Below are positions 63-908 of a stretch of 52,025 nucleotides of DNA, in pieces. Source of the DNA: Alphaproteobacteria bacterium (GTDB lineage: Bacteria > Pseudomonadota > Alphaproteobacteria > Micropepsales > Micropepsaceae); the NCBI GenBank assembly GCA_947474565.1, contig CANJIS010000017.1, positions 1-52,025 of the forward strand, in the 5' to 3' direction. A model generated the notes under the pieces. That model worked only from the letters and a program-made list of their open reading frames with translations, ran no database searches and had not been told where the DNA came from. Numbering within the stretch: the stretch's first letter is position 1; every line of letters starts with the position of its first letter. Both the position numbers and the translations under genes were made by a program.

Positions 63-908
63 GGCTTGCGCCACCTGACGGTGAATGACACCGCTTCCCG
101 CCAAAGCCCGGCCATGACCGAATGCGCCGCTGGTCAGAAACAGTCCAATCCCCAGCAGCAACAACAGCACCGCCGCCGCGCCGCCCCAGGCCAACCAGGG
201 TGGATTGCGGGCCGGGGGCGGCGCAGCCTCGGCAAGCGCGGCGGCGGTTTTCGCCACCTCACGTGCATGGGCGATGAAGTCCTGGATTTCCTTTTCACTC
301 ACCACGCGAACTTCCGGCGCCTCCTCGATGGCGCCGTCAGAGATGTGTTCGACGTGCTCCAGAATGGCGGGGGCAAATTCAGCTGCCCGTTCTTCCGGCG
401 CGCCTGAAGGCACTTCGATCTTTACCTCCGGCATGACGACAGGATCCGCTTCCGGAACAGGTGCCTCAACCGGCGCGGCCACGGGCGCGTCCCATTTCTC
501 ATTCAGGCGCGCAATCGCCTGAATCAAATTCTGTTCGGATTGCTCCTGGCGTTTTTCCAGCGCCGCCAAAGCGCGTTCGAACACGCGCAGCCGCCGCTCC
601 AGCCATTGATCGGCCACAGCGGGCGGAGGTGCAGACGCCGGGCCGGCCCCCACTGCTTTGCGCAGCAGGCTTTGGCGCATTGGTTGCACAGCCACCAGGA
701 TGTCGCTGAGGTCCTTGACGTCTTGTCCCGCCAGGGCCGACAGCAGTTCCGCCTTGCCCGAGAAATGGCGGCGAAATTGCGCCCGGGTGATCTTCGCTTT
801 GGTCAAAAGCGCTTTGACGCTGAAATTGACATTTTCCGCCATCAAGGCGCGCGCGGCGTCCAGCAAAACTGTCCGCGTCTCCACATCGGAAGATTTTTGG
901 TTGTCCAC
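63..908 (-). CDS. TetR-like HTH protein with a transmembrane segment (3' end missing)
   Basis: An uninterrupted reading frame of 282 codons runs from a GTG at 908 to the poly-C edge; a TAA lies two codons upstream, so the start cannot be much earlier. Residues ~10-60 look like a TetR_N helix-turn-helix (LLDAARALMAE, then FRRHFSGKAELL). A region rich in Ala, Pro and Glu with a possible coiled coil (ERRLRVFERALAALEKRQEQ) follows, and at ~235-257 a strongly hydrophobic segment (AAAVLLLLLGIGLFL) is typical of one membrane span. The remainder would be periplasmic but is lost. A TetR-type DNA-binding domain tethered to the membrane is unusual; ordinary TetR proteins are soluble with a ligand-binding C-terminal domain. 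The target is unknown. The FTR1 gene upstream is read in the same direction, about 100 bp away. Confidence 0.7.

What the first reader, a model, noticed from the sequence alone, without database searches (positions are those of the whole stretch)
63..908. TetR-like DNA-binding domain tethered to the membrane
The protein has an N-terminal TetR_N helix-turn-helix, a charged helical middle and one clear membrane span at ~235-257, with the C-terminal part lost. TetR proteins are normally soluble; a membrane-bound one would be a one-component sensor like ToxR or CadC but with a TetR head.
Basis: partly seen in the sequence, partly recalled or inferred. Interest (0 to 1): 0.55.

Follow-up and report, generated by a model that had tools for sequence, protein, structure and literature searches.

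The report
Membrane-anchored TetR-headed protein, cut short
At the broken end of this contig lies most of a gene for a protein that puts a TetR-type DNA-binding head on a membrane anchor with, in its relatives, a repeat domain beyond the membrane, so it is probably a regulator that works from the membrane, in a combination for which I found no published description.

Summary
On the minus strand, 908 to 63, an open frame codes a TetR-type helix-turn-helix (residues 10-62), a coiled segment, a disordered linker and one membrane span (237-263), then runs into a 62-base poly-C contig end. Pfam TetR_N scores 22.7 bits, just under its cut-off of 24, but structure prediction, fold comparison and relatives support the fold. 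Relatives of 433-687 residues supply the likely missing end: Sel1 repeats, by charge rule outside the inner membrane. That body resembles PodJ-like scaffold proteins of the same genus. The gene often sits behind a cupredoxin-FTR1 ferrous-iron cluster; a Fur-box-like palindrome goes with the iron genes, while a separate upstream element goes with this gene. Best reading: a single-pass transmembrane transcription regulator with a TetR head and a Sel1 body. DNA binding, target and signal are not shown; two species have lost the head yet keep the rest beside FTR1, so a scaffold role remains possible. A new variant of a known kind (transmembrane regulators), so far seen in one genus of alphaproteobacteria at the cut-offs used.

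The parts
63..908 (-). Truncated gene for the TetR-headed membrane protein (residues 1-282; the frame continues into the poly-C)
723..881 (-). TetR_N-type helix-turn-helix, residues 10-62
765..785 (-). Recognition helix, residues 42-48 (RAQFRRH); K52 follows
   Evidence: the role of the helix is by analogy with TetR proteins
489..611 (-). Family motif DxWLERRLRVFERAL and helix, residues 100-140 (coiled-coil-like)
297..488 (-). Pro/Ala/Glu-rich linker, residues 141-204, low model confidence
228..296 (-). Juxtamembrane helix, residues 205-227
120..200 (-). Membrane span, residues 237-263
66..119 (-). Stub beyond the membrane, residues 264-281; in the aligned relatives the Sel1 repeats begin within a few residues after this point
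1..62 (.). Poly-C run at the contig end, probably an artefact; cuts the gene
956..987 (-). Conserved upstream element GAATTGCG-N19-GGTAA of this gene (candidate own promoter/operator)
1007..1834 (-). FTR1/EfeU-type iron permease, neighbour upstream
1854..2180 (-). Cupredoxin (FtrB-like by neighbourhood), neighbour
2209..2235 (.). 27-base inverted repeat in front of the cupredoxin; Fur-box-like; goes with the iron genes, not with this gene

Best explanation
It is a single-pass inner-membrane protein, N-terminus in the cytoplasm: a TetR-type head, a coiled segment that may pair two heads, a flexible linker, one span and (in relatives; lost here) a Sel1-repeat solenoid in the periplasm. Shown by computation: head fold, single span, Sel1 body in relatives, conservation in the genus. 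Inferred: that the heads bind DNA as dimers, that the Sel1 solenoid binds an envelope or periplasmic partner, and that this changes the pairing, position or stability of the heads and so the expression of target genes. The first candidate target is its own upstream element; iron-uptake or envelope genes are further candidates.
For: TetR fold. TetR_N in 24 of 27 and Sel1 in 25 of 27 members. K or R at position 52 (the phosphate-contact lysine of TetR proteins, recalled) in 36 of 38 heads, and the window head has the highest net charge of the 38, +6. Head dN/dS 0.06-0.09 against 0.13-0.27 in the linker, from three close sequences and only 2-4 replacements in the head. K/R richer on the N-terminal side of the span in 26 of 27, the window itself being the exception at 1 against 2. 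Sel1 solenoid at block pLDDT 94-98 over residues 301-480 of relative L002. An upstream element at a steady place (-63 to -79 of the start codons I chose, spacing 19, once 18) scores 11-13 of 13 in 16 of 27 upstream regions, against 3 of 300 random windows reaching 11; it is there with (12) and without (4) iron genes, and its strict form has two places in the own genome.
Against: No DNA binding or regulation is shown. The window head scores below the Pfam cut-off; L002, the closest of eight relatives compared, has no TetR_N match at E<=0.1. L010 and L012 (genomes G028, G027) lack the head, by secondary loss, and still stand beside FTR1. The head of L093 has net charge -6 and no basic residue at position 52; most heads are near neutral, as are the five soluble TetRs compared. 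The Sel1 part is about as constrained as the head (0.11-0.12). The Fur-like palindrome does not go with this gene. The upstream element was read out of the same sequences it was then scored on, reaches 11 in 4 of the 9 loci without iron genes and in none of the distant members L089, L091-L096, and no sigma-70-type promoter match was found in 850-2350 (0 found, 0.4 expected).
Confidence: 0.5

Rival explanations
1. A PodJ-like envelope/polarity scaffold in which the TetR-derived head serves as a protein-binding or dimerisation module, with no specific DNA target.
For: A profile of the family's Sel1 region gives 238-287 bits for 8 PodJ-like proteins of the genus, 199-277 for the TetR-headed ones in the same run and 50-110 for three other Sel1 proteins of the own genome. 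The 8 PodJ-like rows form one group among the TetR-headed ones. The head is lost in two species while the rest is kept; the L093 head is acidic. PodJ is described with periplasmic Sel1/TPR, span, disordered region and coiled coils (passages of PMC9926476 and PMC8980812).
Against: The head is kept in 24 of 27 members, under somewhat stronger constraint than the linker, with a basic residue at position 52 in 36 of 38. The label PodJ-like is mine, from layout and a recalled N-terminus: NCBIfam gave no PodJ model and Pfam no peptidoglycan-binding domain for L100.
Confidence: 0.22
2. A membrane-to-chromosome tether: the head binds chromosomal sites to place DNA at the envelope rather than to regulate genes (working like SlmA or RefZ, recalled).
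For: Same architecture evidence; TetR-fold proteins with such roles are known (recalled).
Against: The only candidate site found lies in front of the gene itself, which fits regulation better.
Confidence: 0.13
3. An accessory part of an FtrABC-type ferrous-iron transporter: the Sel1 domain organises the periplasmic iron proteins with the permease.
For: FTR1 upstream on the same strand within 2.1 kb in 25 of 41 genomes with an FTR1 match and in 17 of 26 public loci; kept there even where the head is lost; neighbours are permease, cupredoxin and, in 11 of 26 loci, a P19-type protein.
Against: 14 of the 50 genomes I listed with the family have no FTR1 match, and 5 with an FTR1 match are not on my family list (that list is incomplete). 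9 of 26 public loci show no FTR1. In five loci a divergent gene lies between. The upstream element is there in both settings.
Confidence: 0.12
4. The protein is the regulator of the neighbouring iron cluster, binding the 27-base palindrome at 2209-2235.
For: The palindrome stands in front of iron clusters beside the family gene: 15 of 16 at 6 or fewer mismatches, 11 of 16 better than the best of 100 shuffles.
Against: It is also there in 6 of 10 iron clusters with no family gene beside them (L120, L121, L122, L124, L126, L129) and not in front of the family gene in 9 of 9 loci without iron genes. Layout and neighbours fit Fur, and the own genome has two FUR-family proteins.
Confidence: 0.03

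Closest known systems
Transmembrane transcription regulators (ToxR, CadC, TcpP; survey PMC10269533)
   Same: DNA-binding-type domain inside, single span, outer domain; single-pass is the commonest form in that survey (abstract, passages and Results section read).
   Different: The head is TetR-type rather than the ToxR-type winged helix (recalled); the outer part is a Sel1 solenoid. The survey's Table S1 of DNA-binding domains was not seen and may already list TetR heads.
PodJ (Caulobacter polar scaffold)
   Same: Coiled coil, disordered linker, one span, periplasmic Sel1 repeats (passages); PodJ-like proteins of the genus score like the family with its Sel1 profile.
   Different: TetR head in place of PodJ's N-terminal part and long coiled coils; no peptidoglycan-binding domain found in the relatives scanned, nor in PodJ-like L100.
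Soluble TetR regulators of the same genus (L013, L018, L019, L025)
   Same: Same HTH, with a recognition-helix region similar to that of the distant family members.
   Different: No Sel1 body; open frames of 204-279 residues.
ExoR (periplasmic Sel1 regulator of ExoS/ChvI; passages of PMC4550343)
   Same: Sel1 repeats in the periplasm as a regulatory, partner-binding domain; weak NCBIfam match far below cut-off, and MerG and AlgK models score as high or higher.
   Different: ExoR is a separate secreted protein acting through a sensor kinase; here the Sel1 domain is joined to a DNA-binding-type head.
HigX, a LytTR transmembrane regulator (PMC13384398; abstract and passages)
   Same: Membrane-bound regulator in alphaproteobacteria, envelope targets.
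   Different: Four spans, LytTR domain, no apparent periplasmic domain.

Membership tests
TetR/AcrR family regulators | N-terminal TetR_N helix-turn-helix | tested here: met
   Window 22.7 bits, just under cut-off 24; model, fold comparison and relatives support it
TetR/AcrR family regulators | C-terminal helical ligand-binding and dimerisation domain | tested here: not met
   No TetR C-terminal family match in the window protein at E<=1 or among 27 members at E<=0.01; the model has a low-confidence stretch 64-93, one long helix, a linker and a span instead
Transmembrane transcription regulators (TTR) | DNA-binding-type domain plus at least one membrane span in one chain | tested here: met
Transmembrane transcription regulators (TTR) | Binds DNA and changes transcription while in the membrane | not testable with these tools
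   Needs ChIP-seq, EMSA, reporter and fractionation
Transmembrane transcription regulators (TTR) | Head inside, outer domain in the periplasm | tested here: inconclusive
   K/R excess on the N-terminal side in 26 of 27, the window being the exception; the outer domain is missing in the window
PodJ | Span followed by a PodJ-like Sel1 body | tested here: inconclusive
   Met in relatives against proteins that I label PodJ-like partly by recall; lost in the window; no Caulobacter PodJ sequence was compared
PodJ | PodJ N-terminus and long cytoplasmic coiled coils | tested here: not met
   The WNVAGIPPEAREAAR-type N-terminus of the 8 PodJ-like proteins is absent from the TetR-headed ones
PodJ | Peptidoglycan-binding domain after the repeats | tested here: not met
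   No such Pfam match in relatives scanned; PodJ-like L100 has none either
FtrABCD ferrous-iron transporter part | Homology to FtrA, FtrB, FtrC or FtrD | tested here: not met
   Pfam finds TetR_N and Sel1 in the family and two single weak unrelated matches; the iron proteins are the neighbours

The most novel reading that the evidence does not exclude
A lineage-specific class of membrane regulators made by putting a TetR DNA-binding head on a PodJ-type scaffold body, so that a periplasmic Sel1 solenoid directly controls, or positions at a cell pole, a TetR-DNA complex; the heads autoregulate through the GAATTGCG-N19-GGTAA element.
Probability: 0.25. Interest if true: 0.68.

Novelty: new variant of a known kind. 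Interest (0 to 1): 0.48.

Why it matters
TetR proteins are textbook soluble regulators switched by small ligands in their C-terminal domain (recalled). A conserved family that has, in its place, a membrane anchor and a periplasmic repeat solenoid would show a different way of switching the same head, and gives a test case for how a membrane-held protein reaches its DNA. The shared body would link transcription regulators to PodJ-type scaffolds, and the genus offers natural variants with and without head and with and without the iron cluster.

Tried and rejected
Rejected: frame error or chance frame (conserved across 27 aligned members; dN/dS below 0.3 in every segment of three relatives). Rejected as weak: the head as regulator of the iron palindrome. 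A one-sequence search of genome contigs found no relative; the alignment search found 26, but its only pattern was [AQP]WLERRLRV, so the motif in those 26 is there by selection. At least 11 of the 26 are the same records as loci fetched earlier by G handle, judged by equal contig length, so the two sets are not independent. Sel1 in the own genome: three other proteins over the cut-off and one weak match, none continuing this gene, so the missing end was not found in the assembly. Class-wide search: 3 of 385 genomes match A2 at E<=1e-18, all of the own genus; a fourth genome of the genus in that sample (G074) did not match although it holds a TetR-Sel1 protein (L102), nor did the one genome of a sister genus, and only up to 5 candidates a genome were scored. 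'One genus' therefore holds only for that cut-off and sample. The own genome gave no match to a PodJ-like N-terminus, a single query without a control, which shows little. (script) failed on file names. L005, L008, L010, L012, L013, L018, L024 and L026 were first read on the wrong strand and redone. Gene calling by longest frame is noisy in this GC-rich DNA; neighbours were redone by tblastn. Literature: searches (25 of 556 papers listed; 25 of 269; 8 of 8; 10 of 1,490) for TetR with membrane or Sel1; none of the listed titles describes this architecture; only open-licence PMC papers are searched and many hits were unrelated words beginning with 'tetr'. PMC7327166 was opened for Sel1 and TetR and had only a reference. 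The Fur-box label rests on recall of a 7-1-7 layout; PMC9368920 (passages) speaks of a 19-base 9-1-9 palindrome without letters. VIA-align rows cover residues 1-72 only, which is no test of the rest.

Row handling: 53 family places and 41 FTR1 places were typed by hand; one search's list was cut by the tool, and some family places are heads matched alone in long frames, so 50 of 69 genomes is a working count; gaps are between profile matches, not gene ends. Five of the 41 FTR1 matches (G015, G019, G035, G086, G092) are partial, in frames of 650-773 residues; all five are among the 16 not near. In one search rows L106, L107, L110, L111, L112 and L113 were left out as repeats; near-copies L080, L082, L085 were kept there and. 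In one search L029, L031, L106, L107, L111, L113 and rows with too short a Sel1 stretch (L075, L009 and the window among those not in the tree) were left out. The second Sel1 miss is not named by the tool; L075 is my guess.

Full report
What is there. The gene lies on the minus strand, GTG at 908, and is open to base 3 of the window, but bases 1-62 are a pure C run, so only about residues 1-281 are real. The window is the whole of contig C17 of a 2.18 Mb, 39-contig genome. Pfam TetR_N covers residues 15-59 over the whole profile at 22.7 bits, E 8.6e-05, below the curated 24. The AlphaFold2 model built with eight relatives has four head helices at high confidence, a long helix 101-140, low confidence at 141-204, a helix 205-227 and the span 237-260; overall pLDDT 69.5, pTM 0.29, so the parts can be used but not their arrangement. 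The 50 Foldseek rows shown are transcription regulators, TetR-family by title or recall, all with E above 0.001; the VIA-align second look gives Z 11.1 at 1.8 A over 64 residues to TtgR and includes DNA-bound members (6c31, 4jl3, 7ju3, 5ua2).

The missing part. Full-length relatives run to 433-687 residues with the start codons I chose and continue, by eye some 20-40 residues past the span, into Sel1 repeats. Of 27 members of alignment A4, 25 match Sel1 (the window cannot) and 24 match TetR_N at E<=0.01. The model of L002, 43-44% identical to the window and the closest of the eight compared, shows head, coil, span and a Sel1 solenoid at block pLDDT 94-98, which matches Sel1 crystal structures. 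The block D-x-W-L-E-R-R-L-R-x-F-E is invariant in A4. A wider set of TetR-headed Sel1 proteins of the genus lacks the exact block (L098, L101-L103, L105, L108, L109, L144-L146 among others). K/R counts are higher on the N-terminal side of the span in 26 of 27 (102 against 42 in total), so the Sel1 part is predicted to be periplasmic; the window protein is the one exception.

Distribution. An alignment search of public genome contigs returned 26 loci. Their titles are rough: mostly 'Alphaproteobacteria' or 'Proteobacteria' bacterium MAGs, with Hyphomicrobiales, Rhizobiales and Rhizobium sp. labels for one each; one, L094, is titled Rhizomicrobium sp. and is placed in Micropepsaceae in the tree output, as sister (100/100) of L017 from a genome of the own genus. 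I infer that the genus is Rhizomicrobium or near it. All 26 were found by the WLERRLRV pattern, and all 26 have the head in the same frame; a span was checked in 25 of them directly or through the same contig under another locus id (L095 was not). In a class-wide sample 3 of 385 genomes matched at E<=1e-18, all of the own genus. Within 69 genomes of the genus all matched at 1e-6, but many of those matches are soluble TetR proteins of about 200 residues.

Origin. Eight PodJ-like proteins of the genus (N-terminus WNVAGIPPEAREAARAAARREG; the PodJ label is by layout and recall, with no NCBIfam PodJ model and no peptidoglycan-binding match for L100) score 238-287 bits with a profile of the family's Sel1 region, the TetR-headed proteins in the same run 199-277, and three other Sel1 proteins of the own genome 50-110. 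In a Sel1 tree of 46 rows the 8 PodJ-like rows form one group (99% of 200 bootstrap trees), and the headless L010 and L012 are nested beside TetR-headed L011, so their head was lost. A third headless row, L104, has its head in another frame. The direction of exchange between PodJ-like and TetR-headed proteins is not settled, since the outgroup is very distant.

Neighbourhood. Upstream on the same strand lie an FTR1 permease (1007-1834) and a cupredoxin (1854-2180). By tblastn FTR1 is upstream on the same strand in 17 of 26 public loci, the cupredoxin in 16 and a P19-type iron protein in 11. Among 41 genomes of the genus with an FTR1 match, 25 have it 0.1-2.1 kb upstream of a family place, 17 of them within 300 bases. 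But 14 of 50 family genomes listed lack FTR1, in five loci a divergent gene lies between, and BrkB- and AsmA-type genes lie downstream in 12 and 11 of 26 loci, with and without iron genes.

Control elements. A 27-base inverted repeat in front of the cupredoxin (2209-2235) is conserved in front of iron clusters: 15 of 16 at six or fewer mismatches to the window form; 11 of 16 beat the best of 100 shuffles, L090 and L094 only equal it, L074, L077 and L095 do worse. It also stands in front of 6 of 10 iron clusters with no family gene beside them (28-46 bits in L120, L121, L122, L124, L126, L129; 16 or less in L123, L125, L127, L128) and not in front of the family gene in 9 of 9 loci without iron genes. 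It therefore goes with the iron genes and looks like a Fur box; the own genome has two FUR-family proteins, and no second close copy: three places at up to 3 mismatches, one of them this. By contrast, GAATTGCG-N19-GGTAA stands 63-79 bases in front of the family gene at 11-13 of 13 matches in 16 of 27 upstream regions (three of the 16 are near-copies; 4 of the 16 lack iron genes), against 3 of 300 random windows reaching 11. The strict pattern has two places in the own genome, one of them this; the other was not looked into. In L077 and L081 the element contains CAATTCGAATTG, a perfect dyad. Neither a terminator-like site in 909-1006 nor a sigma-70-type promoter in 850-2350 was found by simple scans. 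I read the element as the gene's own promoter or operator; whether the TetR head binds it is untested, and the consensus came from the same sequences.

Is the head still a DNA binder? For: K or R at position 52 in 36 of 38 heads, F49 in 38 of 38, positive charge in the window head (+6), L081 and L088 (+4); dN/dS in the head 0.06-0.09 in three close relatives, below the linker (0.13-0.27) and close to Sel1 (0.11-0.12), on few changes. Against: most other heads have net charge near zero, as do five soluble TetRs compared; L093 is -6; two species lost the head. These measures show constraint on the fold, not DNA binding.

Judgement. The class 'transmembrane transcription regulator' is known and large: one survey counts 50,302 with over a hundred kinds of DNA-binding domain (PMC10269533, Results section read; Table S1 not seen). 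I therefore rate this a new variant: TetR head, no TetR C-terminal domain, Sel1 body like that of PodJ-like proteins, in one bacterial lineage. The papers listed by four searches (lists capped) did not include one on this combination.

Noticed in passing
window 1-62: Contig begins with 62 C in a row, probably a sequencing or assembly artefact; it would be annotated as poly-Gly or poly-Pro.
   Followed up: partly
window 2209-2235: Inverted repeat TATACTTGC-N9-GCAAGTATA between the cupredoxin and the divergent metallo-beta-lactamase-fold gene; conserved, Fur-box-like.
   Followed up: yes
L097, L100, L138-L143: PodJ-like proteins of the genus whose Sel1 body scores like that of the TetR-headed family; none found in the own genome with one query.
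   Followed up: partly
L010, L012 (genomes G028, G027): Family members that lost the TetR head but kept coil motif, span and Sel1 and stay beside FTR1.
   Followed up: partly
window 3200-3817: Soluble TetR regulator (49.6 bits); a relative lies in 14 of the 26 public loci around the family gene.
   Followed up: no
L091, L092, L094, L101, L102 between FTR1 and the family gene: Divergent gene for a probably secreted Trp/His-rich protein (WHGRHHGRNGWWW-like) between the two.
   Followed up: no
L104 (G063:C4:50500-54500): TetR head and Sel1 body appear in two different frames, a possible split or frameshifted copy.
   Followed up: no
genomes G015, G019, G035, G086, G092: Partial FTR1 matches inside frames of 650-773 residues, probably another kind of FTR1-containing protein.
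   Followed up: no
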